From Mycolicibacterium holsaticum DSM 44478 = JCM 12374 (GTDB lineage: Bacteria; Actinomycetota; Actinomycetes; Mycobacteriales; Mycobacteriaceae), in assembly GCF_019645835.1 (NCBI RefSeq), contig NZ_CP080998.1, forward strand, positions 5,270,001-5,334,000: a DNA stretch of 64,000 nt, written 5' to 3'. Shown piece by piece: positions 6,401 through 27,600 of this stretch (position 1 is the stretch's first letter; the number at the start of each line of letters is the position of its first letter). The notes below the pieces were generated by a model. That model worked only from the letters and a program-made list of their open reading frames with translations, was not told the origin of the DNA and searched no databases. Made by a program: the position numbers and the translations under genes.

Positions 6401-9400
6401 CAGACCAACGGCAGGCCGCGGCGTGCCGGGGTGAGCTCGTTCGGGTTCACCGGAACCAACGCGCACGTGTTGATCGAGGAGGCGCCGTCCACACCGGTCG
6501 GTGAGCCCGAACAGCACGATCCTCGCGACACGTCCGTGCACGTACTCCCGTTGTCTGCACGGTCACCGGAATCGCTGGTGGCGTTGGCGCGGCGCTACGA
6601 GACCTGGTTGGGCACACACCAGGATGTCGACCTCGCCGACGTGTGCTTCACGGCCGGAACGGGCCGTTCACATTTCGAGCATCGCGCCGCACTGGTCGTC
6701 GACTCCGTCGACACGGCCCGCCAGGGTCTGGCCGACATCGTCGAGAACCGCACCCGACCCGGCGTGGTGCGCGGCGAGCACACCCATCCCCCGACGACGG
6801 CCTGGTTCTTCACCGGACAGGGCAGCCAGTATCCCGGGATGGCGCGTGAATTGTTCGACGCCGAACCGGTTTTCGCCGAGACGGTGACACGGTGCGCGGA
6901 GGCGGTCAAGGACATGTTGCCGCAGCCGCTGCTGGAGGTGCTGTTCGCCGCCGACCGGGAGACCGGGGCCCGGCTGCAGCACACGTCGTATGCGCAGCCG
7001 GCGTTGTTCGCGCTCGAGATGGGGCTGGCCCGGCTGTGGCAGTCGTGGGGCGTCGAACCCGACGTGGTGCTGGGGCACAGCGTCGGCCAGTACGCGGCGG
7101 CGTGTGTGGCCGGGGTGTTCAGCGTCGAAGACGGCGCACGGCTGATGGCCGAACGCGGCCGGATGTTCGGCAGCCTGGCCGAAGGCGGACGCATGGTGGC
7201 GGTGTTCACCGACGCCAAGCACGTCGAAGACGTCGCGGGCGAGTTCGCCCGGGTGTCGGTCGCTGCCTACAACGGGCCCAACACCGTGCTGTCGGGTCCG
7301 GGCCACGACCTGGAGCAGATCGTCAGCAGGTTCGCCGACGAGGGCATCCGCTGCACCTGGCTGGCGACCAGCCACGCCTTCCACTCCGAACTGCTCGATC
7401 CGGTGCTCGACGAGTTCGAGTCCTATGCCGCACAATTCGAATTCGCCACCCCCACGTTGCCGCTGGTCTGCAACCGCACCGGCGCCGTGCTCACCGCGCA
7501 GACCCCGCTCGACGCGTCCTACTGGCGCCGGCATTCCCGCCAGCCCGTGCAGTTCGCCGAGAGCGTGCGCACCGTGGCGGCGCTGGGATGCTCGATTCTG
7601 ATGGAGATCGGTCCGCAGCCTGTGCTGACCGGTGCGGCGGTGCAGGTGTGGCCCGAGCACCTGGCGGCGCCAAGGGCGATCGCGTCGTTGCGTAAGGGCG
7701 TCGGCGACCGGCGCCAGATCGCTGACGCGCTGGCTTCGGCCTATGCCGGCGGGCACCACCCCGATTTCGCCGCACTGCAGCGGCGCCCGGGTCGCCGGCT
7801 GGAACTGCCAACCTATCCGTTCCAGCGCCGCCGGTTCTGGCCGCAGACCTCCAACATCGCCTTCGATGGCGCACCGGTTTCTGGAATACTGGGCAGCGCA
7901 AAGGAACTCGCATCCGGGGACACCGTCTACACCAGCAGGTTGTCGGTGAAATCGTTGCCATGGGTGTCCGACCACGTCATCTACGGCACCGTCGTCGTCC
8001 CCGGGGCGACGTACGTGACGATGGCGTTGGCCGCGGCGGGTCCACCTGCCCGTGTATCGAACATCTTCTTCTACGAGCCGATCATCTTGCCTGAGAAGAG
8101 TTCCCGGGAGGTGCAACTCACGTTGCACCCGCTGGACAACGCGGGGGAGAACGCGGCCGAGTGGAGGTTCCAGGTCCACAGCCGTCCGTACGGGGCGCGC
8201 GGTGCCGAATGGTCGTTGAACGCCGACGGCACCGTCGTGCGCGACGACGCCGGCTTCCCCGACGATCCGGCGTCGCCGCAAGCGAATTCGATCAACGAAA
8301 TCGTCGAGCGGTGCACGCGTTCGCGCCCGCAAGAGCTGTTCGAACTCGTCGCCGACGCCGAGCTGGAATGGGGACCGACCTGGTCGGGCTCCCTGAAGTC
8401 GCTGTGGGTCGGCGAGGCCGAGGCGATCGGTGACATCCTCGTCGGCGAGGAACTGGCCCAACATCTCGGCACCGAACCGATGCACCCGGTGTTATTGGAC
8501 TTGTGCACCGGGCTCACGTTTCCGGCGTTTCCGACGCGCCAGGCGATGGACCAGGGCGTGGACGATCTGCTTCTGCCGTTGCGGTACGGCCAGCTGACGG
8601 TGCAGGAAAAGATGCCTCGCCGGTTCTACTGTCACACGAAGTGGCATCCCAGCGACGTCGACGCCGAAACGCAGCTCTTCGACCTGGATTTCTTCGATCG
8701 AGAGGGCCGCAGGCTGGGCGGCATCCGCGAGTTCACCGTCAAACGCGCGCCCCGCGAAGTGCTGCTGCGCGGATTGAGCGGTGATAGCACCCGGATGCTG
8801 TACACGCTCGGTTGGCACGAGGTGCCGACGCCGGCGTCAGGCGAGGGCGCCGCGGCGATCAACGGAACCTGGCTGGTCGCCGGCTTAAACGATCTGGCGG
8901 CCCTGCTGCCGGGCTGTATCCCGTTGGACCGCGACGCCGAAACGCGGCCGTTGGGACAGGTACTGACGCAGGCTCACGAGCGCGGCGAGGCCTTCTCCGG
9001 CGTCGTGTGGCGTTGCGCCGCCCCGCCGGCCGAGGAGTCGAGCGCCGAGGCCACCGCGCGGATCGAGAACGAGATCGCCAACCTGCTCAGCGCCGTGCAC
9101 GCGGTGCAACGCGGAGAGGTGAAACTGCCTGGCGGACTGTGGATCATCACGGAGCGCGCGGTGGCCACCGACTCGGGCGAACCGGTCGACCCCGTGCAGG
9201 CGGCGATGTGGGGTTTCGGGCGCACGGCGATCAACGAGGAACCCGCCCTGCGGTGCAGGCTCGTCGATTGTGACGGATCACCGGACGCCGTGCAGGTGTT
9301 GGCCGACCTGGTGGCCGCGCCGGTCGACGAACCGGAACTCGCAGTGCGACAAGGAAAGCTGCTGGCGTCGCGGTTGCTGCCGTGGGCGCGGGGCGGGCAT

Positions 9401-11476
9401 CTCACGGTGCCGCGGGCCGATGATTACGTGCTGGCGCCCACCGAACGCGGCGCGATCGACAACCTGCGGCTGAGCGAGGCCGATGTGCCGCCACCCGCGC
9501 CTGGCTGCGTGCAGGTCCGGGTGGAGGCCGCGGGCCTCAACTTCCGGGATGTGCTCAACGTGCTCGGCCTCTATCCGGGCGACCCCGGCCCGATCGGCGG
9601 CGACTTCGCAGGCGTCGTCACCCAGTTGGGTGACGGTGTCACCGGACTCGAGGTGGGTCAGCGGGTGTTCGGCTGCATGCAGGGCGCGTTCTGCAGCCGG
9701 TTCAATGTGCCCGAACAGTTGCTCGCACCGATACCCGACGGCGTGGGCGCGGTCGAGGCCGCCACGGTTCCCGCCGCGGCGTTGACGGCCCGCCTGGCGT
9801 TCGATTGGGCGCAGCTGCGACCCGGTGACCGGGTGCTCATCCACGCCGCCAGCGGCGGCGTCGGCATGGCGGCCATCCAGATGGCCCGGGCGCACGGCGC
9901 CACGGTCTTCGCGACCGCAAGCACCTTCAAACGCGCGACGCTGCGCCAGATGGGGGTGGAATATGTATACGACTCGCGCAGTACCGATTTCGCCGATCAG
10001 ATCCTGGCCGACACCGACGGCGCGGGCGTGGACGTGGTGCTCAACAGCCTGACGAACGACGGGTTCATCGAAGCGACCGTGCGCGCCACCGCCAAGAACG
10101 GCCGCTTCGCCGAGATCGCCAAGCGTGACATCTGGACACCCGAGCAGATGGCCGCGGCCCGCCCCGACATCGCCTACGAGATCGTCGCGCTGGACACCGT
10201 GACGTTCGAGGACCCGGTGCGTATTCGGGGCCTGCTGGGCCAGGTGTCGGAAGGGCTGGGCAAGGGCGAGTGGGCGCCGCTGCCCGCCGAGGTGTACCCG
10301 CTCACGGAGGCCAGGGCCGCGTTTCGCCGCATGCAGCAGGCGCGGCATATCGGCAAGATCGTGCTACAGATACCCACCCCGTTGCAGCCCCGTCCGGACC
10401 GCAGCTATCTGATCACCGGTGGACTCGGCGCGATCGGGCTGCACACCGCCTCCCACCTCGCCCAACGAGGCGCGGGCGACATCGTGTTGACCAGCAGGCG
10501 CGGACCCGACACGCAGGCGCAGCAGGCGATCGCCGAGCTCACCGAGCGCTACAAGTGCCGCATCCACGTCCGGACCGCCGATGTCGGCGACGAGTCCGAG
10601 GTGACCGGACTGCTCGAGCGCATCCGCGCGGAGTTGCCGCCGCTGGCCGGCGTGGCCCACCTCGCGGGCGTGCTCGATGATGCGCTGCTGTCGGCGCAGA
10701 ACATGCAGCGGTTCCAGACGACGTTGGCGCCCAAGGCATTCGGCGCCTGGCATCTGGACCGCTTGACCCGGGATGACGACCTCGACTTCTTCATCGTGTC
10801 CTCGTCGGTGTCCAGCGTGCTCGGATCGCCCGGTCAGTCCAACTACGCGACGGCCAACGCGCTGCTCGACGGTCTGGTCGCCCACCGCAAGGCGCAGGGC
10901 CTGCCCGCCACCGCGATCAACTTCGGCCCGTGGGCCAAGGGCGGCATGGCGTCGTCGGACGCCGCAGGCGCCAATGTCCGGGCGCAGGGCCTGGTTCCGT
11001 TGGAGCCGTCGTCCGCGCTGAGCGCGATGGCCGAGGTCGTCGCGAACGGCACCGCGCAGGCCGCGATCATCAACGCCAACTGGCAACGCGCGGCGAAGAT
11101 GTTGGGCGCCACGCGCCCGCCGATTCTTGACCTGGTGCTGCCCAGAGCGGGCGACGACGCCGCCGGGGACAGCCAGTTGCTTCACCAGCTGATCGAGATA
11201 CCCGCGCCTCAACGGGCCGGCTTCGTGACCGAGTTCCTTCAACGCGAGGTGCAGAACTTCCTGCGCCTGGCCCAGCCGCCTGCGCCGACCAGTCGGTTCC
11301 TCGACCTCGGTACGGATTCGTTGATGGCCATCGAACTGCGCAACCGGTTGCACAGTCAGTTCGGCGACGCGTTCACGATCGATGTGACCGCGGTGTTCGA
11401 CTATCCGACGATCGGGTCGCTCGCCGAGTACCTGGTCGCCCAGATGCCCGATATGAAGCCGCCGACCGGCGGGTGA
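479..11476 (+). CDS. pks: Two-module type I polyketide synthase of the trehalose polyphleate type
   Basis: The 3665-aa protein reads KS-AT-KR-ACP-KS-AT-DH-ER-KR-ACP with no loading domain and no thioesterase. KS1 spans about 12-437 (Cys184, His319, His359). AT1 spans about 550-850 (Ser644; HAFH at 742-745, the malonyl type). KR1 has its Rossmann motif near 1195 and Tyr1343. ACP1 carries Ser1512. KS2 spans about 1576-2001 (Cys1748, His1883, His1923). AT2 has Ser2201 and HAFH at 2299-2302. The DH has His2499 in HVIYGTVVVP and Asp2674 in HPVLLD. The ER spans about 2981-3298 and KR2 has Tyr3456. ACP2 carries Ser3614. Module 1 has no dehydratase. KR1 lacks LDD and has Trp1335 eight residues before the Tyr, an A-type signature; KR2 has LDD at 3399-3401, the B-type. 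Malonyl-only modules fit unbranched phleic acids, which repeat a four-carbon unit with one double bond. Its divergence from papA3 supports a TPP role, like M. smegmatis MSMEG_0408. Its stop is 1 nt from the convergent downstream gene. Confidence 0.9.
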   Translation: MVSAGRVNEPDTRIAIVGYAARFPGAEDVDDFWNLLHDGRDAISEVPQDRWKVDDFFDPEPGTPGKIVTRRGGFLDDPTGFDAPFFGISTREARQVDPQHRLLLETAWRAVEHSAIAPSALAETTTGVFVGLSTHDYLGMVSDGLNYHEIEPYTSIGSSNAAAAGRISYRLGLQGPAVAVDTACSSSLVAIHQACQALRLNECDLALAGGANSLLSPATMVTFSLARMLAPDGRCKTFDAAADGYVRGEGCGVIVLKRLDDAIRDGDRIRAVIRGSAVNQDGASGGLTVPNGVAQKRVITDALNRAGVDPSAVGYLEAHGTGTSLGDPIEAKAAGEVFGAGRDADRPLLIGSAKTNIGHLEAAAGIAGVIKVILALEHTTLPKHLNFENPSPHIPWDRLPIEVVKETIPWERDGGPRIAGVSSFGFAGTNAHVILEEAPAARQPADPGPVDEPDEADEAQPFSILPLSARTPGALIALADLYRGWLTKNSDATLADVCFTAGVGRAHLEHRAALVVNTRDSAIELLGALADDRPATGLVRGDSQDPPKTAWLFTGQGSQYPGMARELFDTEPVFAETMRRCAEAVADVLDKPLLDVVFDVDSPDCEETLRQTSYAQPALFAVEMGLARLWQSWGFEPDVVLGHSVGQYAAACVAGICTLEDGALLMAERGRLFASLSAGGRMVAVFTAAERVENVADEFPTLSVAAYNGTNTVLSGPATDLEKAVAALEADGVRCDWLDTSHAFHSALLDPILDEFESYANRFNFGAPQLVLIDNRTGSALGWGTTLDGAYWRRHARQPVEFAKSVRTLAEMNCKLLVEIGPRPVLTAAAMGAWPDPATAPRAVASLRQNTADHRQIVEALADAYTLGHLPEFSTLRRGRPRKVDLPTYPFEHQQYWFTDNRPEDHPDDASRPPTARTEALGLLEDGRIEELAALLDGSGSDQQTLDVLTKFAAQHNRQLTTRSIADDRYEICWEEVTSGAAGAPTGEGPTWILVGEITPAVAPLVDALTARGHRHRIVGLPGSDADEAQLSDTLRDAASADLRIVHVAALDADPGRPAAFSMRSLLRMQHRILAGTRRLFRAVNAAGQRVPIWLVTRNAQRVTDADTVAPDQGCLWGFGRAASLELPQVWGGLADLAQGTADEWSRLIDRIAAPRDAGIIEDQVALRHHAVYAPRLVRRVSPPGLTPLQLRADATYLVTGGLGSLGMEIAGYLAGHGARQLVLTGRRPPTEAVRQRLDALSEQHGCELRVITADVADAHDVARLLARVADELPPLAGIVHAAGEIGTTPLSDLDDAEIDRVFAGKVWGAWHLSEAAPDLKLDFFVSTSSIASVWGGFGQTAYGAANAFLDALGWRLREQGIAGISVNFGPWSAGMADVESRARLDQRGVKTMSPADALTGLADAVATSTAGPAQAVVARIDWSRFLPLYQQAGRRAFLTALEREVPTAPTTPADVLASGKTELVERLTNAPVQQRKKLVTTYLRDAVAEVTRVDAAEIREDTGFFDLGMDSLMAVELRRRLEQAVGKEIPVTLVMDHPRVSDAADYLLGDVLGLAVQTPAKADPVSAAVEPTRTDEPIAIIAVSCRFPGAADPEAFWELLSGGVDAIREVPEDRFDIDEFYDPDPEAAGKTYTRFGGFLDAIDEFDPEFFGISPREAVWIEPQQRLMLETVWEGLERAGYAPAALRGSRTGIFTGVAANEYAHLLSTQSIDKIEPHFITGNALNAVSGRVSFALGLEGPAVAVDTACSSSLVAVHQARQALQSGDCDLAVAGGVNVLLSPVSTVAASRARMLSPGGRCKTFDASADGYVRSEGCGVLVLKRMSDAVRDGDRIAAVIVGSSVNQDGASSGLTVPNGGAQQRLIEATLSRAGLSGGEVDYLEAHGTGTPLGDPIEVQAAAAAYGVARDADRPLLMGSVKTNIGHLESASGAAGLIKVVLSLQHGLLPQSLHFDDPSPHIPWDTLPVQVVDESVPWQTNGRPRRAGVSSFGFTGTNAHVLIEEAPSTPVGEPEQHDPRDTSVHVLPLSARSPESLVALARRYETWLGTHQDVDLADVCFTAGTGRSHFEHRAALVVDSVDTARQGLADIVENRTRPGVVRGEHTHPPTTAWFFTGQGSQYPGMARELFDAEPVFAETVTRCAEAVKDMLPQPLLEVLFAADRETGARLQHTSYAQPALFALEMGLARLWQSWGVEPDVVLGHSVGQYAAACVAGVFSVEDGARLMAERGRMFGSLAEGGRMVAVFTDAKHVEDVAGEFARVSVAAYNGPNTVLSGPGHDLEQIVSRFADEGIRCTWLATSHAFHSELLDPVLDEFESYAAQFEFATPTLPLVCNRTGAVLTAQTPLDASYWRRHSRQPVQFAESVRTVAALGCSILMEIGPQPVLTGAAVQVWPEHLAAPRAIASLRKGVGDRRQIADALASAYAGGHHPDFAALQRRPGRRLELPTYPFQRRRFWPQTSNIAFDGAPVSGILGSAKELASGDTVYTSRLSVKSLPWVSDHVIYGTVVVPGATYVTMALAAAGPPARVSNIFFYEPIILPEKSSREVQLTLHPLDNAGENAAEWRFQVHSRPYGARGAEWSLNADGTVVRDDAGFPDDPASPQANSINEIVERCTRSRPQELFELVADAELEWGPTWSGSLKSLWVGEAEAIGDILVGEELAQHLGTEPMHPVLLDLCTGLTFPAFPTRQAMDQGVDDLLLPLRYGQLTVQEKMPRRFYCHTKWHPSDVDAETQLFDLDFFDREGRRLGGIREFTVKRAPREVLLRGLSGDSTRMLYTLGWHEVPTPASGEGAAAINGTWLVAGLNDLAALLPGCIPLDRDAETRPLGQVLTQAHERGEAFSGVVWRCAAPPAEESSAEATARIENEIANLLSAVHAVQRGEVKLPGGLWIITERAVATDSGEPVDPVQAAMWGFGRTAINEEPALRCRLVDCDGSPDAVQVLADLVAAPVDEPELAVRQGKLLASRLLPWARGGHLTVPRADDYVLAPTERGAIDNLRLSEADVPPPAPGCVQVRVEAAGLNFRDVLNVLGLYPGDPGPIGGDFAGVVTQLGDGVTGLEVGQRVFGCMQGAFCSRFNVPEQLLAPIPDGVGAVEAATVPAAALTARLAFDWAQLRPGDRVLIHAASGGVGMAAIQMARAHGATVFATASTFKRATLRQMGVEYVYDSRSTDFADQILADTDGAGVDVVLNSLTNDGFIEATVRATAKNGRFAEIAKRDIWTPEQMAAARPDIAYEIVALDTVTFEDPVRIRGLLGQVSEGLGKGEWAPLPAEVYPLTEARAAFRRMQQARHIGKIVLQIPTPLQPRPDRSYLITGGLGAIGLHTASHLAQRGAGDIVLTSRRGPDTQAQQAIAELTERYKCRIHVRTADVGDESEVTGLLERIRAELPPLAGVAHLAGVLDDALLSAQNMQRFQTTLAPKAFGAWHLDRLTRDDDLDFFIVSSSVSSVLGSPGQSNYATANALLDGLVAHRKAQGLPATAINFGPWAKGGMASSDAAGANVRAQGLVPLEPSSALSAMAEVVANGTAQAAIINANWQRAAKMLGATRPPILDLVLPRAGDDAAGDSQLLHQLIEIPAPQRAGFVTEFLQREVQNFLRLAQPPAPTSRFLDLGTDSLMAIELRNRLHSQFGDAFTIDVTAVFDYPTIGSLAEYLVAQMPDMKPPTGG

Positions 11477-19717: not shown

Positions 19718-21070
19718 ATGGCTACCGATCTGTATTCGCAAATCGTCCATTCGGCGCCCGGATCGTTCCTCGCCAAGCAGCTCGGCGTCCCGCAGCCCGA
19801 GACGTTGCGCCGGTATAAGCCGGGTCAGCCGCCGCTGGCGGGCTCGGTGCTCATCGGCGGGAACGGCCGCGTCGTCGAGCCGCTGCGCACCGCGCTGGCC
19901 GAGGACTACGAGGTGGTGTCGAACAACATCGGCGGACGCTGGGCCGACTCGTTCGGGGGTCTGGTGTTCGACGCGACCGGCATCACCGATCCGTCCGGGC
20001 TCAAGGAGCTGTACGAGTTCTTCACCCCGGTGCTGCGCAACGTCGGGTCGTCGGGGCGCATCGTCGTCATCGGCACCACGCCCGAGGAGGCGGGCAGCGC
20101 CCACGAGCGCATCGCGCAGCGCGCGCTGGAGGGCTTCACCCGCTCGCTCGGCAAGGAGATGCGGCGCGGCGCGACGGTGAACCTGGTGTACCTCTCCCCG
20201 GCGGCCAAACCGGCCGCCACCGGCCTGGAGTCGACGCTGCGGTTTGTCCTTTCGGGCAAGTCGGCCTACGTCGACGGGCAGGTGTTCTCGGTGGGTGCGG
20301 CGGATTCGTCGCCGCCCGCGGACTGGGACAAGCCGCTGGACGGCAAGGTCGCCATCGTCACCGGCGCGGCGCGCGGTATCGGCGCGACGATCGCCGAGGT
20401 GTTCAGCCGCGACGGGGCGCGGGTGCTGTGCATCGATGTGGAGGCCGCCGCCGAGCCGCTCGGCGTGACGGCGACCAAGGTCGGCGGCACCGCGCTGACG
20501 CTCGACGTCACCGCCGACGACGCCGTCGACAAGATCACCGAGCACCTGCGGGAGAACTACGACGGCCGCGCCGACATCCTCGTCAACAACGCGGGGATCA
20601 CCCGCGACAAGTTGCTGGCCAACATGGACGAGGCCCGCTGGGACTCCGTCGTCGCGGTGAACCTGCTTGCGCCGCTTCGGCTTACCGAGGGCCTGGTGCG
20701 TAACGGCACGATCGGCGACGGCGGCCGGGTGGTCGGCCTGTCGTCGATGGCCGGGATCGCGGGCAACCGGGGCCAGACCAACTACGCGGCCACCAAGGCG
20801 GGCATGATCGGGCTGACCGACGCGCTGGCCGAGGAGTACGCCGACAGGGCGGTCACGGTCAACGCCGTCGCACCCGGTTTCATCGAGACCAAGATGACCG
20901 AGGCGATTCCGGTGGCCACCCGGGAGGTCGGCCGCCGGCTGAACTCGCTGTATCAGGGCGGCAAGCCGGTCGACGTCGCCGAGGCCATCGCCTATTTCGC
21001 CAGCCCGGCGTCAAATGCCGTCACGGGCAACACGATTCGGGTGTGCGGACAAGCGTGGCTGGGGGCTTGA
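19718..21070 (+). CDS. fabG4: Long-chain 3-oxoacyl reductase FabG4
   Basis: The 450-aa protein has an N-terminal flavodoxin-like Rossmann region (about 1-205) that lacks a usable glycine motif. A classical short-chain reductase domain follows, with TGAARGIGA near residue 214, NNAG, Ser343, Tyr356 and Lys360 (YAATK). This two-domain build and length are those of the high-molecular-weight FabG4 (Rv0242c), an NADH-dependent 3-ketoacyl-CoA/ACP reductase. ATG at 19718 is the only plausible start. htdX begins 1 nt after its stop, so reductase and dehydratase are made together. The divergent fadA2 adds the thiolase step, making a compact acyl-CoA cycle with fadE5. Confidence 0.93.
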
Positions 21071-21071
21071 G

Positions 21072-21914
21072 GTGACGCAACCGTCTGGGCTGTTGAACCT
21101 GGTGCGCGCGGCGGCGGGCGCGCTGCCATTCGTGCCGCGCGACGACAAGCTGCCCGAGCGCACGCTGACCGTCGAGGACGTGAGCATCGACCCCGCGAAC
21201 GTCGCGGCGTACGCCAACGTCACCGGGTTGCGGTTCGGTGACGCTGTGCCGCTGACGTATCCGTTCGCGTTGACGTTTCCCACCGTGATGGCGTTGGTCA
21301 CCAGCTTCGATTTCCCTTTCGCCGCAATGGGTTCGGTGCACATCGAGAACCACATCACGCAGTACCGGCCGATCGCGGTCACCGACACGGTGTCGGTGCG
21401 GGTGCACGCCGAGAACCTGCGCGAGCACCGGCGCGGGCTGCTGGTCGACATCGTCACGGACGTGAACGTCGGCAACGAGCGGGCATGGCATCAAGTGACG
21501 ACGTTCCTGCACCAGCAGCGCACCAGCCTGTCCGACGAGCCGAAGCCGCCACCGCAGAAGCAGCCGAAGCTGGGCCCCCCGAATGCGGTACTGCGGATCA
21601 CGCCCGGCCAGATCCGCCAGTACGCGTCGGTCAGCGGGGACCACAACCCGATCCACACCAACGCGATCGCGGCCAAGCTGTTCGGCTTTCTCACGGTGAT
21701 CGCGCATGGAATGTTCACCGCCGCGGCGGTTCTGGCGAACATCGAGGGCCAGTTACCGGACGCGGTGAAGTATTCGGTGCGCTTTGCAAAGCCGGTGGTG
21801 CTGCCCGCGGCCGCGGGTCTCTATGTCGACCGGGTGACCGACGGCTGGGATCTGACGTTGCGTCACCTGAAGAAGGGCGATCCGCATCTGATGGGGACGG
21901 TCCACGCGCTGTAG
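21072..21914 (+). CDS. htdX: (R)-3-hydroxyacyl dehydratase HtdX
   Basis: The 280-aa double-hotdog MaoC-type protein begins MTQPSGLLNLVRAAAGALPF, matching HtdX (Rv0241c). The hydratase-2 motif SGDHNPIHTN carries Asp190 and His195, the catalytic pair for reversible hydration of trans-2-enoyl-CoA/ACP to (R)-3-hydroxyacyl. The N-terminal half (about 1-150) is the degenerate hotdog that binds the acyl chain. The start GTG at 21072 is 1 nt after the fabG4 stop, with a G-rich ribosome site inside the fabG4 end. The product of FabG4 is its natural substrate. This gene marks the left border of the accessory island. Confidence 0.93.
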   Translation: MTQPSGLLNLVRAAAGALPFVPRDDKLPERTLTVEDVSIDPANVAAYANVTGLRFGDAVPLTYPFALTFPTVMALVTSFDFPFAAMGSVHIENHITQYRPIAVTDTVSVRVHAENLREHRRGLLVDIVTDVNVGNERAWHQVTTFLHQQRTSLSDEPKPPPQKQPKLGPPNAVLRITPGQIRQYASVSGDHNPIHTNAIAAKLFGFLTVIAHGMFTAAAVLANIEGQLPDAVKYSVRFAKPVVLPAAAGLYVDRVTDGWDLTLRHLKKGDPHLMGTVHAL

Positions 21915-22406
21915 GTGCTGGTTTTGCGAGAAGTGCGCACGTGGAAGCGTGATCGTTGCCCGATCGTCATTGGCAGCGCTGCGCAATGTCGATGCGCCTC
22001 TTGCGATATCGGCTTTGAGTATTCGGTAGTTGTAGACACGTATAGCGAAAGGAGTCGAAGGGGCAGCGTGCCAGCGCCTGCATAGGCATGTGACATGGCA
22101 GAACAGGGCACCCGCGAAGGGCTTCTAGCGCTCTTCGAAGAGCACCTGGGGTGCCCGGCGCGGGCGAACCAGGTGTTCGATGGGGGCACTCCAGCGCGTC
22201 GAAACGAATGGCCGTCTCTATTCGCGTGGTATTCCACAACACCGGGATGTCCCATGCGCTGCTTAACCCGGCTGGAGCTCCACGACAGAGCTCTACTTTG
22301 TCGACAAAGCAGGCATGCCTGACCCAAAGAACATAGCCCCGTGGTGGAGTCGGTCAGGCAGCAGCGAGACGGCATCAAATAAGCGACGACCGCACCGCGA
22401 TCAATC
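21915..22406. other. Gene-poor island border
   Basis: This 492-bp stretch is visibly less GC-rich than its left neighbour. It holds only short ORFs with no ribosome site or recognisable protein family, including one of 75 codons at 22095-22322. No tRNA or attachment core was found. It is probably decayed mobile DNA left of the TIR gene. Confidence 0.4.
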
Positions 22407-22768
22407 TCAGGTAGAAACACCGAATTCTGCACCCCACCGCATGAAAACCCGTAGCCCCATCGGGGTAGCGGCGTAGGTGACTATAGGAATGGGCATTGGA
22501 GGCAGATCACTGCCTGGCACCGGGTCGCGCTTCCGTTTCAGCGCCTCAATCAAACCGGAATTTATGAGCAGGTCGGTGATGCGTCGCGGCTTGCTGTCCC
22601 CGAAGCGCTCCATCATGTCGACGGATAAAATCCACTCGGGGCTGAGCTCTTGCTTTATCCAAGTCCTGTAACACCGGTGACGCTCGTTAGCGGTGAGGAT
22701 AGATCCAACAGATTCGGCCATTTCCACCGCAGCACGCGCAGCTGCGATCTCTTCTGCGATGCCGACTG
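22407..22768 (-). pseudogene. 3' part of the IS-interrupted TIR gene (winged-helix-like C-terminus)
   Basis: This fragment encodes the C-terminal 120 residues. It starts in AVGIAEEIAAARAAVEMAES, continues through RTWIKQELSPEWILS and MMERFGDSKPRRITDLLINS, and ends RVFMRWGAEFGVST. The second half has the helix-turn-helix then beta-wing spacing of a winged-helix domain, which is inference. The open frame continues upstream only into the IS end (a GTG at 22802), so as it stands it lacks its own start. Removing the element and one copy of the 7-bp duplication joins it in frame to the TIR domain at 25414-25783, giving 243 aa in total. On its own it is probably not made or not functional. Confidence 0.75.
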
Positions 22769-22775
22769 CTCCAAG
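22769..22775. repeat. Target-site duplication, left copy
   Basis: CTCCAAG occurs here and again at 25414-25420, directly abutting the TG...CA ends of the IS21-family element. A 7-bp duplication is within the 4-8 bp usual for IS21. The pair fixes the insertion point to the base. Confidence 0.85.
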
Positions 22776-22836
22776 TGTCATTCGCCAGGGTGATGGGACC
22801 ACCGTTTAGCCACGAGGTAGGGACCACCTGTTTGGC

Positions 22837-23640
22837 TCAACGGGGATGATCTGTGGTTGACGGCGAGCTGTCAACTGAGGGCTTCTGGCGTTGCCGGTAG
22901 GACGGCCCCTCGATGATGAGTTCGTGCGCGGTGGAGGTAAGTCGGTCGACGGCGGATTCGGCGAGCATCGCGTCGGTCATGACCGACAACCATTCATCGG
23001 GTCCACGATTTGAGGTCACAATGGTCGCGCTGCGTTGATGTCTGGCGACAACCAGTTCGTAGAAGTCGGCGGTGGCTGTAGCGTCGAGCGGTTGCAGTGC
23101 GAAGTCATCGATAATCAGCAAGCGCACTTGCGCGAGTCGCCGTATCTCGGCTTCGGTGCTGTTGTCGAGTCGAGAAGCTCTGAGCCGCTTGAACATTGCA
23201 TCAGCACGCAGCATCAGTGTCGGGACTCGTCGACGCACCGCAATGTGGCCCAGCGCGGTCGCGAGGTGAGTTTTGCCGACGCCGACCGCCCCGAGGACCA
23301 CCGCACCGTGGGCGGCGTCGAGGAACCGCAGACTGGTCAGGTCGGTCCACAGGGTCCGGTCGTAGCGCACCGCAGCATCTTCGTCCCAGGTGTCTAGACG
23401 CATGGTGGGATCGAGGCCGGCGATGCGGGCTCGCCGCGCGGCGGAGCTGGTGTCGCGGCGGGTGGCTTCGTCGGCGAGGACCAGTTCGAGGAACGCGGCG
23501 TGGGAGAGGTGCTGTTGGCGGGCCAGGGCGAGTCGGTCGGGCAGGGTGTCGAGTATCGGTGAGAGTTTGAGTTGGCGCATCGCCTTCTTCAAGTCGGGTG
23601 AGATCGGATCAGTGACAACCTCTTTGGCAGGCTTGGTCAT
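22837..23640 (-). CDS. istB: IS21-family helper ATPase IstB
   Basis: The 267-aa protein has Walker A GAVGVGKTHLATALG, Walker B VRLLIIDDFAL and the sensor-like ATIVTSNRGPDEW, the DnaA/DnaC-like AAA+ pattern of IstB. IstB oligomers remodel target DNA and stimulate the IstA transposase. The start is ATG at 23640 (MTKPAKEVVTDPIS), overlapping the istA stop by 1 nt (TGATG), which indicates translational coupling. An upstream start at 23691 would lie inside istA and is rejected. Nothing suggests inactivation. Confidence 0.93.
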   Translation of the reverse strand: MTKPAKEVVTDPISPDLKKAMRQLKLSPILDTLPDRLALARQQHLSHAAFLELVLADEATRRDTSSAARRARIAGLDPTMRLDTWDEDAAVRYDRTLWTDLTSLRFLDAAHGAVVLGAVGVGKTHLATALGHIAVRRRVPTLMLRADAMFKRLRASRLDNSTEAEIRRLAQVRLLIIDDFALQPLDATATADFYELVVARHQRSATIVTSNRGPDEWLSVMTDAMLAESAVDRLTSTAHELIIEGPSYRQRQKPSVDSSPSTTDHPR

Positions 23641-25253
23641 CACAGCCCCTTCTGATCGTCGGTGGTGCCGCCGTCGATGACCTGCAACCATTCCGGCCGC
23701 GGTGTGGGGCGGTAGTCGCGGGGATCGCGGGCGAACCGGGCTGCAGCCAACCCGGAGGCAGCCCGCGGCGGCGGGACGGGGCTGTTCTCGATGGCCTGCT
23801 CCAGCATGGCGGTGATCTTGGTCATCGAGACGACATCGAGATCCAGGGCGCGCGCGCAGGCGGTGTCCACCGGGGCGGGGCCGTAGCGTTTGACCAGCCC
23901 GAGCAGCCGATACACCTGACGCATCCTGGTCCAGGGCAGATCGTGATCGAGCAGGCGTTCGGCGTAGATGCCGATATTCGGGCCGTGACCGGCTGCGGTG
24001 GCGATGAGCCGGTGCAGATCGCGCATCGCGTATCCGGTCTTATCTGCGGGCAGATCAGCGGGGTCAGTAGAGCGGGTCCCGGCGGGTTGACGTGGGTGAG
24101 TCTTCACCAGCTGTCCGCGATGGTAGAACTTGGCCAACTCGCCATCGGCCCGCGCCGATAGCGTCTGGCCGCGCAGGTGGTGCGGGATCGAATACAACGC
24201 CTTGGCCAGCTGGACGTGATAGTCGCGGGCCACTTTGACCTCGGCATATACCGGCACCACATACCGCAGCGTCGGAGCAGCCAACAGTGCCGGTGCCTCC
24301 CGGTCGGCGAACACCACCGCCGGCTGGGCGCAGGTGGTGCCATGGATACGCAGACCCGCTTTCTGGGCGCACCACAGCTGGGCGCGGTGTTGGGCGTCAG
24401 CGAGGTCGCTGAACTCTTCGCCGGCGAAGAAGTTGTTGCGCACGTACTGCACCATCCGCTCCACACGCGGTTTGTCTTGTGGGTGGGCCACCCGAGCCGG
24501 GTCGGTGGCGAAGCCGCGGGCCTGGGAGTATTCCAGCCACCCCACGGTGAACCTGGGGTTCACTGAATCTGCATGGGCAACAACCGTTCCCATGTTGTCG
24601 GGAATGAGGACTTTGAAGACACCGCCGAAGAAATCCCAGGCTGCTTCGCAGCCGTCGATGACCGCGGTCAGGGTTTGGGAAAACGTCAGCCATACGAACA
24701 TGTGCCGGGAATACACCGCGGTGAAGATCAGCGCATGCACCACCCGACGCCTGCCCGTCGCAGTGTCAAACAGCATGCCCATCCGGGCGAAGTCGATCTG
24801 GCATTCCATCCCGGGTTCGCCGTCGACGACCGGCACCGTCCCACCGCGGCGCCGGCCCTGATACTTGGTGTGTTCCTGGCAGTAGCGGTGCAACGTGCGC
24901 TGCGGAACGATCACGCCCTGGCGGGCCAGCAGGTCACCGATCTTGACCACCGTCAGGCCCTTGTCGACCCACTGGTTGATCTGACTATGGTTGGTGCACA
25001 GCACTTCCCACGCTGATCCGTGCCCTTGCGGCCGGTCCGGGCGCACCACGGTGACCACCGCGCCGATCAACGCGTCATCGAGCTGATCGACCCCACCGGC
25101 CCGGTCCAAGCCAGCAGCCACCGCGGCCTCGACATAGCGCCGTGCAGTTTTGCGATCCACCCCAGCCTGGCTGGCCGCCACCCGCAGTCCGTGGCCAGCC
25201 AGCCACGTCCGAAGCACTTCACGAATCTCGACCACAGAAACCTCCCGAAACAT
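23640..25253 (-). CDS. istA: IS21-family transposase IstA
   Basis: The 537-aa transposase has an N-terminal helix-turn-helix (ASQAGVDRKTARRYVEAA). Its RNase H-fold DDE catalytic core shows CQIDFARMG (first Asp), VLIPDNMGTVV (second Asp) and DKPRVERMVQYVRNNFF (Glu), followed by the C-terminal beta-barrel region typical of IstA. It cuts and joins the element ends. The start is ATG at 25253, about 160 bp inside the right end. Full length and intact catalytic residues indicate an active copy. Confidence 0.93.
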   Translation of the reverse strand: MFREVSVVEIREVLRTWLAGHGLRVAASQAGVDRKTARRYVEAAVAAGLDRAGGVDQLDDALIGAVVTVVRPDRPQGHGSAWEVLCTNHSQINQWVDKGLTVVKIGDLLARQGVIVPQRTLHRYCQEHTKYQGRRRGGTVPVVDGEPGMECQIDFARMGMLFDTATGRRRVVHALIFTAVYSRHMFVWLTFSQTLTAVIDGCEAAWDFFGGVFKVLIPDNMGTVVAHADSVNPRFTVGWLEYSQARGFATDPARVAHPQDKPRVERMVQYVRNNFFAGEEFSDLADAQHRAQLWCAQKAGLRIHGTTCAQPAVVFADREAPALLAAPTLRYVVPVYAEVKVARDYHVQLAKALYSIPHHLRGQTLSARADGELAKFYHRGQLVKTHPRQPAGTRSTDPADLPADKTGYAMRDLHRLIATAAGHGPNIGIYAERLLDHDLPWTRMRQVYRLLGLVKRYGPAPVDTACARALDLDVVSMTKITAMLEQAIENSPVPPPRAASGLAAARFARDPRDYRPTPRPEWLQVIDGGTTDDQKGL

Positions 25254-25413
25254 CCGCGGACCCCTTCACATGACTTCGATGTGAAGCGATCCGATCCAGT
25301 TATCGAGCGGCCCCCGACGCGACACGCCGGTGGTCCCATAACTGGCAATCAGGTGGTCCCATGACCGTGGCTAAACCCAGGTCAAACCGGTCCCATCACC
25401 CTGGCGGGCGACA

Positions 25414-25420
25414 CTCCAAG
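25414..25420. repeat. Target-site duplication, right copy
   Basis: CTCCAAG directly follows the ACA end of the IS21-family element and repeats 22769-22775. On the coding strand it reads CTTGGAG in the same codon phase (Leu-Gly) on both sides of the element. Confidence 0.85.
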
Positions 25421-25783
25421 CACCGCTGACATGCCGGCGGCGAAGTCATCGCGGAAATCGGCGTACTTGATGTCTGCTAGCAGCGCGGGAGGGTCTGAGT
25501 CATCGAGTCGGCAAGGGACTATGGGTTTATCATTCGCCATCGCGGTCATGAAGAAAGCATTCAACTCTCGTTTGACCCATCGCGATTGCAGGGCTTGATG
25601 CGAGAACGCTAGTAGCAGGAGATCGCTGCTAACAAGGCCTGACGTAACGCCTTCCGTTATGGACTCGCCGACTCTTATATCGGCCTCGTCCAGCCAGACA
25701 TTCACCCCCGAGTCTTTCAGTGCCTGGGTTATCGCCCTTACCGTCGGCTTATCAGCCGATGCGTGCGAGATGAATACCTTCAT
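25414..25783 (-). pseudogene. 5' part of the IS-interrupted TIR-domain gene
   Basis: The fragment encodes a TIR domain: MKVFISHASADKPTVRAITQ, VNVWLDEADIRVGESI, then SDLLLLAFSHQALQSRWVKR and EL. The WxxxEL arrangement places the catalytic NADase glutamate at Glu73. TIR domains of this kind cleave NAD+ or make cyclic ADP-ribose signals, and many act in anti-phage defence. ATG at 25783 is preferred; an in-frame GTG at 25801 starts 3 nt after the phage stopper gene stop. The truncated frame now runs 10 codons into the IS and stops at 25382. The intact ancestor would join to 22407-22768 as TIR plus a winged-helix-like tail. Whether the lone TIR domain is still made is unknown. Confidence 0.82.
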
Positions 25784-25804: not shown

Positions 25805-26134
25805 TCAATGGCGCGCTACGGGGTAGTCGACTTGCGCCGTTCGACGGCTTCCGTTGACGATAGTCGCGTCCCCAACGATGGTGTGCCGCTTGTTGTTCCA
25901 TTCGATCTGTGACTGAGCGCCAAGGACGACGGGGTAGTTGATCAACCGGAGCCGGTAGCGGCTCTCGGTGTTGAAACCGCCCTCAGCGCTCTCGGTCGAA
26001 CCCATTGGTTGGACGACCGCACGGCACACGAGTCCGATCGCTGAGGGTCGAGTGAACGTGTTCCCGTCTGAGCCGGTGATGACCTTTCGGTGAAGACGGC
26101 CATGGTCTCGAGTTCCGCGATTGAGGAGACTCAC
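25805..26134 (-). CDS. Phage head-to-tail stopper/connector-like protein
   Basis: The 109-aa protein reads TGSDGNTFTRPSAIGLVCRA, then ESRYRLRLINYPVVLGAQSQ and EWNNKRHTIVGDATIVNGSR. This is the pattern of small actinophage head-tail joining proteins (stoppers) made beside the capsid and adaptor genes. GTG at 26134 overlaps the TGA of a short upstream frame (26131-26202, ending LFGLIPSIGGVVL) in a GTGA, a phage-style coupling; that upstream frame is cut off by a stop and is probably the tail of a decayed gene. The remaining DNA up to 26429 holds only broken frames. The TIR gene follows within a few bases on the same strand. No other tail genes remain. Confidence 0.6.
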   Translation of the reverse strand: MSLLNRGTRDHGRLHRKVITGSDGNTFTRPSAIGLVCRAVVQPMGSTESAEGGFNTESRYRLRLINYPVVLGAQSQIEWNNKRHTIVGDATIVNGSRRTAQVDYPVARH

Positions 26135-26409: not shown

Positions 26410-26429
26410 GACTGGTCTAGGAGAAGCGC

Positions 26430-26818
26430 ATGGCAATGCAGCATTCGAGCACCGATTACGCATTCAACCCGCACGACTTCGTCAAACTGCCGAACACCGC
26501 GCTCCAAGCGGAGTCGGTTGCTCTGCACGTTTCGAGGGTCGTCAAGACAACAAGATCTCGATGACCTTCCCTATCTGGGACGAGGATCCGGCCTGTGAGC
26601 TGGCTGACCGAGCTGGGCACCATCACCCAGCACCGACGGCAGCACCGAAGGTCTGACGGTCACCCCGAGCAGGGTCGACGGCATCACCCGCCTGTCCAAC
26701 GAGCTCGCCGATGACAACTCCCCGAGGTGGTACTACCACGCTGACGCTCCTGGCGAGAGAAGAGCCGAGCAGCAGGGTTCATCGAGTGGGCAAATCAGGA
26801 GCTCATGCGACTTCTGAG
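26430..26818 (+). pseudogene. Degenerate HK97-fold phage major capsid gene fragment
   Basis: Capsid-like peptides occur in successive frames. MAMQHSSTDYAFNPHDFVKL and ALQAESVALHVSR come first, then RFEGRQDNKISMTFPIWDED, then SWLTELGTIT, then STEGLTVTPSRVDGITRLSN with ELADDNSP. The last motif is a typical stretch of tailed-phage major capsid proteins. At least three frameshifts within about 200 nt, and loss of the whole C-terminal half, make it non-coding. Its orientation is opposite to the connector gene 300 bp away, so the prophage has also been rearranged. Confidence 0.65.
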
Positions 26819-26943
26819 TGGAGCGCCAGGCGTGTGACGCTACATCTGCTGTAAATGTCATGCATGCCAACGAGTATTCGATCATCGACATACCGCTGTC
26901 GCCGCGTCGTCGATCCGAGACTGCGCACAGATCGCGATTTGAC

Positions 26944-27600
26944 CTAGTTCTGCGATCCAGCAGCAGTCTCGACGGCTGGTGACGGCGGTCCGTGCTCGGT
27001 TGGATGATCGGACGGGGTGCCCTTCAGGCCACGCCAGAACAGGTTGATCATCAGCTCGGCGGCCTCGTTGACGTCGGCGTCGCCGGTACTGACGCGGCTG
27101 GCCACCGCCTCACCGGCGCCCACCAGCGCGACGGCCATCATGTCGAAGTCAGTGTCGGGATCGGGGTTGCGGGTGCCCGAGGTGAGCAGGCGGCCAACCA
27201 GGTCGATGATGCGTTCGCGGCCCTCGCGCACGGTGTGGGCGAAGGCCTGGCTGCTGGTCGCCTGGTTGTAGAGCACCATCCACGACGCCCGGTTGGAGTC
27301 GATGTAGGTCAGAAACGCCAGCACGGCGTTGCGCAGCATGTCCTTGGGGCTCTGGGTGAAGTCGATCTGGCTGCGGACCTCGTCGACGAACCGGGACAGC
27401 TCGCGGTCCAGGCATGCGCCGAACAGTTCTTCCTTGGAGCCGTAGTACAGGTACAGCATCGGTTTGGAGATCTGCGCCTGGGCGGCGATGGCGTCCATCG
27501 AGGTCTCGTGGTAGCCGTTCACCGAGAAAATCTCCACGGCAGCATCCAGCATCTGCTGTTCGCGCACTGCGCGAGGTAGACGTTTGGTGCCTCCGGCCAT
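26944..27600 (-). CDS. TetR-family regulator (Rv0238-like), putative regulator of the fadE5/fadA2-fabG4 set
   Basis: The 218-aa regulator begins MAGGTKRLPRAVREQQMLDA. Its N-terminal DNA-binding domain has the helix-turn-helix MDAIAAQAQISKPMLYLYYG and is very like remembered M. tuberculosis Rv0238. The C-terminal ligand domain (about 60-190) contains QATSSQAFAHTVREGRERI; its ligand is unknown, but an acyl-CoA would fit the targets. The perfect palindrome TTACTC-N2-GAGTAA overlaps its start codon, which indicates autoregulation and a leaderless or very short-leader transcript. The same motif marks fadA2/fabG4 and, weaker, fadE5. It stands at the right edge of the accessory island, which separates it from htdX. 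Confidence 0.85.
   Translation of the reverse strand: MAGGTKRLPRAVREQQMLDAAVEIFSVNGYHETSMDAIAAQAQISKPMLYLYYGSKEELFGACLDRELSRFVDEVRSQIDFTQSPKDMLRNAVLAFLTYIDSNRASWMVLYNQATSSQAFAHTVREGRERIIDLVGRLLTSGTRNPDPDTDFDMMAVALVGAGEAVASRVSTGDADVNEAAELMINLFWRGLKGTPSDHPTEHGPPSPAVETAAGSQN

What the first reader, a model, noticed from the sequence alone, without database searches (positions are those of the whole stretch)
22407..25783. IS21-family element split one TIR plus winged-helix-like gene; the ancestor can be rebuilt to the base
The element (22776-25413) has 22/25 matching inverted ends with TG...CA tips and is flanked by CTCCAAG at 22769-22775 and 25414-25420. Deleting it with one repeat copy joins the TIR reading frame (25783-25414) to 22768-22407 in perfect phase, giving 243 codons: a TIR domain with catalytic Glu73 and WxxxEL, and a helical, winged-helix-like tail. 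This is one gene, not two small ones. A TIR NADase joined to a DNA-binding-like domain could be an uncharacterised defence or signalling protein.
Basis: seen in the sequence. Interest (0 to 1): 0.82.

Follow-up and report, generated by a model that had tools for sequence, protein, structure and literature searches.

The report
Satellite-borne TIR immunity gene, IS-split
A mobile transposon has cut in two a bacterial immunity-type gene (a TIR enzyme domain joined to a winged-helix tail) that sits in the decayed remains of a small virus-hijacking element in a mycobacterium; intact copies in relatives show that it was one gene, and several relatives of the element carry TIR genes at the same spot.

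Summary

It lies directly behind a phage head-closure (Hc1) gene, near a capsid fragment, in an eroded island between htdX and tetR. In IS-1742 it lies inside an 11.3-kb integrated element with serine integrase, scaffold, capsid, small terminase, Ad1, Hc1 and 17-bp att repeats. Of 27 genomes (of 392 in the genus) with Hc1 relatives, six carry a TIR gene within 2 kb downstream (three distinct types; 0.013 expected). Most likely it was a TIR NADase abortive-infection protein triggered through its tail; activity is not shown. The window copy is probably dead.

The parts
25421..25783 (-). TIR half of the split gene (121 codons up to the target-site repeat; W69, E73)
   Evidence: PF13676 7e-28 on the ORF as it stands; 81% identical to the TIR part of the M. 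sp. IS-1742 protein, dN/dS 0.107; E73 identical in 9 of 9 full-length homologs
22407..22766 (-). C-terminal (winged-helix) half of the split gene, with stop
   Evidence: 49% identical to the IS-1742 protein, 56% to P0008; model of this half alone resembles winged helices
22776..25413 (-). IS21-family insertion element, 2638 bp
   Evidence: 22/25 terminal inverted repeat; two further copies in the genome, one complete
22776..22800 (+). terminal inverted repeat, left
25389..25413 (-). terminal inverted repeat, right
22769..22775 (.). target-site duplication CTCCAAG, left copy
25414..25420 (.). target-site duplication CTCCAAG, right copy
23640..25253 (-). IstA transposase of the IS
   Evidence: NF033546 3.9e-51
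22837..23691 (-). IstB helper ATPase of the IS (true start may lie further in)
   Evidence: PF01695 5.4e-48
25805..26134 (-). phage head-closure protein Hc1, 21 bp upstream of the TIR start
   Evidence: phrog_320 9.3e-18; 56% identical to the Hc1 in front of the intact gene in IS-1742
26429..26728 (+). frameshifted 5' fragment of a satellite capsid gene
   Evidence: 86% nucleotide identity to the IS-1742 element; PF05065 gene there; frames broken
22110..22379 (+). frameshifted, internally deleted remnant of a second slot gene (relative of the 253-aa gene of G114)
   Evidence: tblastn pieces 41-77% identical, three of them at 5e-9 together, the last at 0.009
26856..26896 (-). probable 5' end of the same second slot gene, displaced by rearrangement
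   Evidence: 81% over 42 bp, E 1e-4 to 5e-4
21015..21914 (+). host gene bordering the island on the left (MaoC family; the name htdX is recalled)
   Evidence: PF01575 2.1e-24; similarity to relatives stops here
26944..27600 (-). host tetR-family gene bordering the island on the right
   Evidence: TetR_N and TetR_C_46; similarity to relatives resumes at its 3' end

Best explanation
The gene was cargo of a ~11-kb mycobacterial phage satellite (PICI-like: integrase plus its own capsid and head-connector genes; no portal, large terminase or tail module recognised). Its slot lies directly behind the head-closure gene Hc1, where related elements carry different genes, TIR genes among them more often than chance allows. 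The protein is a single-gene abortive-infection effector. The TIR domain is the NADase. The winged-helix tail is the sensor or clustering part: when it meets a phage component (protein or DNA) made during infection, it brings TIR domains together and NAD+ is destroyed before the competing phage matures, which protects the cell population and the satellite. In the window the satellite has decayed, and an IS21 element then cut the gene between TIR and tail, which uncouples effector from sensor and most likely inactivates it. SHOWN: split, ends, uninterrupted homologs, satellite setting, TIR genes in the slot of several elements, conserved W69/E73, TIR and winged-helix models. INFERRED: NADase activity, trigger through the tail, anti-phage role, loss of function.
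For: Uninterrupted gene 42 bp behind Hc1 in IS-1742. Element there delimited by a 17-bp repeat at L038:9906 and L039:1188 (11,282 bp apart), with similarity switching at this repeat in 15 of the 16 same-genus loci compared, which keep the target gene whole. Serine integrase, scaffold, capsid, TerS, Ad1, Hc1 recognised. Hc1 relatives in 27 of 392 genus genomes; 6 of these 27 have a TIR gene within 2 kb downstream: TIR-winged helix in G253 and the window, a TIR-TM-like type in G004 with a 65% relative in G166, a ThsB-like type in G035 with a 64% relative in G055. Without the query genome and the window: 4 of 25 genomes, 0.011 expected, Poisson 6e-10, shared descent not corrected. A Stk2/mad6-like kinase next to a broken Hc1 in one more. 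SPARTA, SARM1 and AbTir TIRs are among the nearest folds. Precedents, seen in passages: SpbK, a TIR with a sensor domain clustered by a phage portal (PMC12847820); TIR genes among the cargo of P4-like satellites (PMC9122126).
Against: No activity measured; not every bacterial TIR need be an NADase. The tail's Z (at most 8.3) is middling, and winged helices also do protein-protein work. The exact family is rare: of 396 genus genomes only the window and G253 show both halves; the C half also gave two weak partial matches (G011, 3.4e-4, in a 477-codon frame; G220, 8.5e-4, with a stop) that I did not follow. 14 of the 25 proteins match over the TIR part only and carry other tails, so TIR and tail are not an obligate pair seen from the TIR side. 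The two 11-kb M. aichiense records opened gave no TIR match. Nine of 29 slots hold a tail-completion-like ORF instead (by eye; four checked by tblastn, one of which is the source of the query).
Confidence: 0.6

Rival explanations
1. The protein serves the satellite's own life cycle (regulator or helper interference): the winged helix binds satellite DNA and the TIR part acts on induction, not against foreign phages.
For: Placed at the end of the packaging/head cluster, co-directional and 21-42 bp behind Hc1; winged-helix tail.
Against: Slot content differs from element to element and often has the opposite orientation, which suits cargo; the two isolated relatives opened do without it.
Confidence: 0.15
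2. The truncated TIR half is still made and kept: a bare TIR domain (133 aa) with low activity or a new partner.
For: Nearly the whole TIR model is kept (positions 1-118 of 122); the 133-aa form stands for a cluster of 4 contigs; both halves and Hc1 remain open while the capsid fragment and second slot gene are frameshifted.
Against: Open halves fit a recent insertion as well (IS copies differ by only 7/2638); dN/dS 0.107 mostly reflects time before the insertion; its tail is lost.
Confidence: 0.13
3. An ordinary prophage remnant, not a satellite: the TIR gene is a phage moron.
For: Hc1 relatives also occur in full-size mycobacteriophages (1021 phage records matched).
Against: In that search the 11 best records are 10.9-11.1 kb (62% for the first, 50% for the others) and the four full-size phage records listed have 46%; the IS-1742 element is 11.3 kb with no tail, portal or TerL gene recognised.
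Confidence: 0.08
4. Two separate genes that meet by chance at the IS.
For: None found.
Against: Nine uninterrupted homologs, and the tail found with TIR in the search.
Confidence: 0.02

Closest known systems
SpbK of ICEBs1 (Bacillus subtilis)
   Same: Small single-gene, two-domain TIR protein on a mobile element; TIR NADase with a separate sensor domain (PMC12847820, passages)
   Different: Sensor is an N-terminal 4-helix bundle binding the SPbeta portal; here a C-terminal winged helix, trigger unknown
AbTir / SPARTA TIR / SARM1 TIR (solved structures)
   Different: Different partner domains; activity not tested here
Candidate PICIs and phiRv1-like elements of Mycobacterium (PMC10654092)
   Same: Integrase plus capsid gene, small, integrated; serine-integrase type known there
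   Different: TIR cargo behind Hc1 is not mentioned (0 occurrences of 'TIR' in the main text; supplements not seen); sequence relation to phiRv1 not tested
Immunity hotspots of P2-like phages and P4-like satellites (PMC9122126)
   Same: A fixed slot with variable anti-phage genes, TIR among them
   Different: Other satellite family, other host phylum, other slot
Mycolicibacterium phages Alyssa1, WillG (OR387110, OR387121; 11 kb)
   Same: TerS-Ad1-Hc1-slot-serine integrase ... capsid order; matching parts 40-77% identical
   Different: Slot holds hypothetical genes, no TIR match

Membership tests
IS21 insertion family | IstA transposase and IstB helper ATPase | tested here: met
   NF033546 over cut-off; PF01695 over cut-off
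IS21 insertion family | Inverted ends with TG...CA tips and short target duplication | tested here: met
   22/25; 7 bp at both complete copies
TIR NADases | TIR fold | tested here: met
TIR NADases | Catalytic Glu in WxxxE | tested here: met
   E73 in 9 of 9 homologs; aligned with AbTir; that this Glu is the catalytic one is recalled
TIR NADases | NAD+ hydrolysis | not testable with these tools
   needs an enzyme assay
Winged-helix domains | three-helix core followed by a beta-hairpin wing | tested here: met
Winged-helix domains | DNA binding | not testable with these tools
   needs an assay
Mycobacterium candidate PICIs (integrase plus major capsid gene) | integrase and capsid in one delimited element | tested here: met
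   Met for the IS-1742 element. The window itself keeps only Hc1 and a capsid fragment; no capsid-family match in its whole genome
Capsid-forming PICIs (cf-PICI) | own portal, protease and large terminase beside capsid and connectors | tested here: inconclusive
   None of these recognised among 19 element ORFs scanned with PHROGs, some of them overlapping; divergent ones could be missed. Not filed as cf-PICI
Thoeris | ThsB TIR together with a ThsA effector | tested here: inconclusive
   The window gene gives only partial ThsB model matches (best 1.1e-11); ThsA was not searched for specifically, and none showed among the neighbours scanned with Pfam. Not filed as Thoeris

The most novel reading that the evidence does not exclude
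A bacterial TIR NADase switched on by clustering on phage DNA through a winged-helix tail, carried in a dedicated immunity slot behind the head-closure gene of a family of mycobacterial satellites that still makes particles (the 11-kb M. aichiense 'phages').
Probability: 0.18. Interest if true: 0.8.

Novelty: new variant of a known kind. Interest (0 to 1): 0.56.

Why it matters
Phages are being tried against mycobacteria, and what mycobacteria and their mobile elements carry against phages bears on that. This points to a defined place (behind Hc1 in small capsid-bearing satellites) where such genes can be looked for systematically, gives three TIR types found there, and supplies an intact, named homolog (M. 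sp. IS-1742) for testing. It also suggests that a set of 11-kb deposited 'phages' are satellites whose helpers should be sought.

Tried and rejected
Two-gene reading: rejected. Chance target repeat: rejected (second copy with its own repeat). Plain chromosomal gene: rejected in favour of satellite cargo. Relatives of the protein in viral contigs: none by single protein or alignment. Named phage relatives of the protein: only a 37%-coverage TIR match in two records of Enterococcus phage EFC-1. Order-wide search: 28 of 397 genomes matched at 1e-10; apart from the window the listed matches cover mostly the TIR part, the longest reaching model position 181 of 232 (G253 is not among the matches, so was evidently not drawn). 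Sequence search for the tail in PDB and Pfam: nothing significant. The VIA list for the full model covered only residues 1-130, so the tail was modelled alone (mean pLDDT 77.7, pTM 0.69); the Foldseek list for that model could not be started. The att repeat of IS-1742 is not in the window, so the window island's own att site is unknown. The contigs of P0005-P0011 and P0015 were not fetched, so their setting is unknown. The species of the window is named by no tool; the genus follows from G253, which is M. sp. IS-1742, being listed as same genus. No publication on the M. aichiense 11-kb records was seen in the listings of searches (open-licence PMC only; papers of 107 not opened for this, except that PMC10654092 was read in part). 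TIR cargo in mycobacterial satellites was not seen in the listings of searches; the last used 'mycobacter' as a whole word and so tests little.
Full report
OBSERVATION. The window holds an IS21-family element at 22776-25413 with inverted ends (22 of 25) and CTCCAAG on both sides; IstA and IstB are recognised. The genome has two more copies: one complete, 7 differences in 2638, with its own 7-bp repeat GCATGGG; one lacking the right end. The TIR frame from 25783 and the frame ending at 22407 (both - strand) are in phase once the IS and one repeat are discounted (363 + 9 + 360 bases). This is arithmetic only; the halves were searched apart throughout, since the window belongs to the genus of a listed agent.

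ONE GENE. The C half found an open frame of 238 codons in genome G253 (47%); the TIR half found the same frame (79%). The frame is L005:1129-1842, 237 aa, P0004, Mycobacterium sp. IS-1742. One search gave two further weak partial matches to the C half (G011, G220), not followed. Of the 25 proteins, nine are full-length and uninterrupted (P0004-P0011, P0015; 222-245 aa), one is the truncated form (P0012), one is partial (P0013), and 14 match over the TIR part only. At residues 122-124, which the target repeat encodes in the window, eight of the nine have G123 and eight of the nine A124. A search with the C-terminal part alone gave 6 proteins: five full-length TIR-tail proteins and P0013, which begins inside the TIR part (sequences); proteins under about 135 aa could not appear there, so a stand-alone tail is not excluded. 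Pairwise with IS-1742, dN/dS is 0.107 (TIR half), 0.382 (C half) and 0.46 (Hc1) (dS near 1, so rough).

SETTING. The ORF 25805-26134 directly upstream is a head-closure Hc1 protein (phrog_320 9.3e-18), 56% identical to the Hc1 in front of the intact IS-1742 gene. 26429-26728 is a broken capsid 5' fragment, 86% identical in DNA to that element. 22110-22379 is a frameshifted relative of a 253-aa gene that in G114 follows Hc1, and 26856-26896 resembles its first 41 bp; the block has thus been rearranged. Similarity to relatives stops at the end of htdX and resumes at the 3' end of tetR. The two genes lie 5029 bp apart here, at most 275 bp apart in 11 of 24 same-genus relatives, 749 bp in 1, 1.1-1.3 kb in 6, and tetR was not within the fetched stretch (0.8-1.5 kb) in 6 (these 24 are the same-genus loci, in which 34 of 41 genomes matched). 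In G114 a different satellite remnant (Hc1 77%, capsid 35% to IS-1742) occupies the same interval, so the site is used repeatedly, or the islands share an old insertion with later exchange.

THE SATELLITE. In IS-1742 the element runs between two copies of a 17-bp repeat (L038:9906, L039:1188; 11,282 bp apart) at the 5' end of a gene of the nitronate monooxygenase family; 15 of the 16 same-genus loci compared switch from left to right flank at that repeat, and for the sixteenth no right-hand match was found. The element carries a serine integrase, a DNA-binding/replication-protein-like gene, scaffold, capsid, TerS, Ad1, Hc1, the TIR gene and unknown genes. No portal, large terminase or tail gene was recognised. 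The published criterion for candidate mycobacterial PICIs is integrase plus capsid gene (PMC10654092, passages and section 9); cf-PICIs carry portal and large terminase too (PMC10690885, passages), so I do not file it there. Relatives of Hc1 occur in 1021 phage records; the best is the 11,078-bp Alyssa1 (62%), and 12 Mycolicibacterium records are counted, 11 of them listed, all 10.9-11.1 kb. The two that I opened have TerS-Ad1-Hc1-slot-serine integrase...capsid and an annotated tape-measure gene; that they are satellites is my inference.

THE SLOT. Hc1 relatives were found in 27 of 392 genus genomes, the window's included (29 places, two of them pieces of one gene). Downstream content was read for all 29 loci. 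TIR genes follow within 2 kb in 6 of 27 genomes: the present type in G253 and the window; a type scoring as PADLOC TIR-TM (7.5e-41) in G004, with a 65% relative in G166 beside a truncated Hc1; a type matching a PADLOC ThsB model over its whole length (1.3e-105) in G035, with a 64% relative in G055. The 27 genomes hold 37 TIR_2 matches in all at E 0.01, so 0.013 would be expected within 2 kb downstream of Hc1; without the query genome and the window, 4 against 0.011. Since these four form two related pairs, they are about two independent events beside the query type. One more genome has a Stk2/mad6-like kinase beside a broken Hc1. Slot proteins of G114, G354, G040 and G147 matched no PADLOC model; nine loci have a tail-completion-like ORF there (by eye), and the rest were not assigned.

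MECHANISM. TIR NADases become active when a partner domain clusters them; SpbK does so on phage portals, and its authors note that self-association on DNA is known for some plant TIRs but not yet described for a bacterial TIR system (PMC12847820, passages). TIR genes in satellite hotspots that protect against phages are known from P4-like satellites (PMC9122126, passages). I therefore take the present protein for a satellite-borne abortive-infection effector whose tail senses a phage component. The IS separates TIR (133-aa product, the last ten residues from the IS) from the tail; loss of function is likely, not shown.

NOVELTY. Satellite-borne TIR immunity is a known kind; this architecture, this slot and this host group make it a new variant. 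No report of it was seen in the listings, within an open-licence library.

Noticed in passing
L179 (OR387110), L180 (OR387121): 11-kb Mycolicibacterium aichiense 'phage' genomes have the satellite gene order with serine integrase and no portal annotated, one 'terminase' (TerS-like by tblastn) and, of tail genes, only a 'tape measure'; probably satellites.
   Followed up: partly
L143 (G114), 7003-10812: A different satellite remnant lies between the same two host genes as in the window, with a 253-aa gene of no recognised family in the slot.
   Followed up: partly
L038:16442-17593 (-); L179:10353-11021 (-): Genes behind the capsid, opposite to the head operon, with an R-x4-H-like stretch (REIRNAYEH, EIRHAVQH) recalling HEPN ribonucleases, by eye; no model matched. 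Possibly a second cargo slot.
   Followed up: partly
L162:6713-7816 (+): IMG/VR 12.5-kb contig with Ad1 and Hc1 has a 367-aa gene in the slot with weak HNH_2 and DUF6941 matches below cut-off.
   Followed up: partly
L140:274-1485: Protein kinase (mad6/Stk2/PD-T4-6-like) next to a broken Hc1.
   Followed up: partly
L074, L078, L083, L084, L085, L088 (downstream of htdX): Six relatives have 1.1-1.3 kb between htdX and tetR; the interval looks like a general insertion spot.
   Followed up: no
G000:C1:1000395-1000718 and G000:C1:3629913-3630209: Two further TIR_2 matches (frames of 598 and 946 codons) in the window's genome.
   Followed up: no
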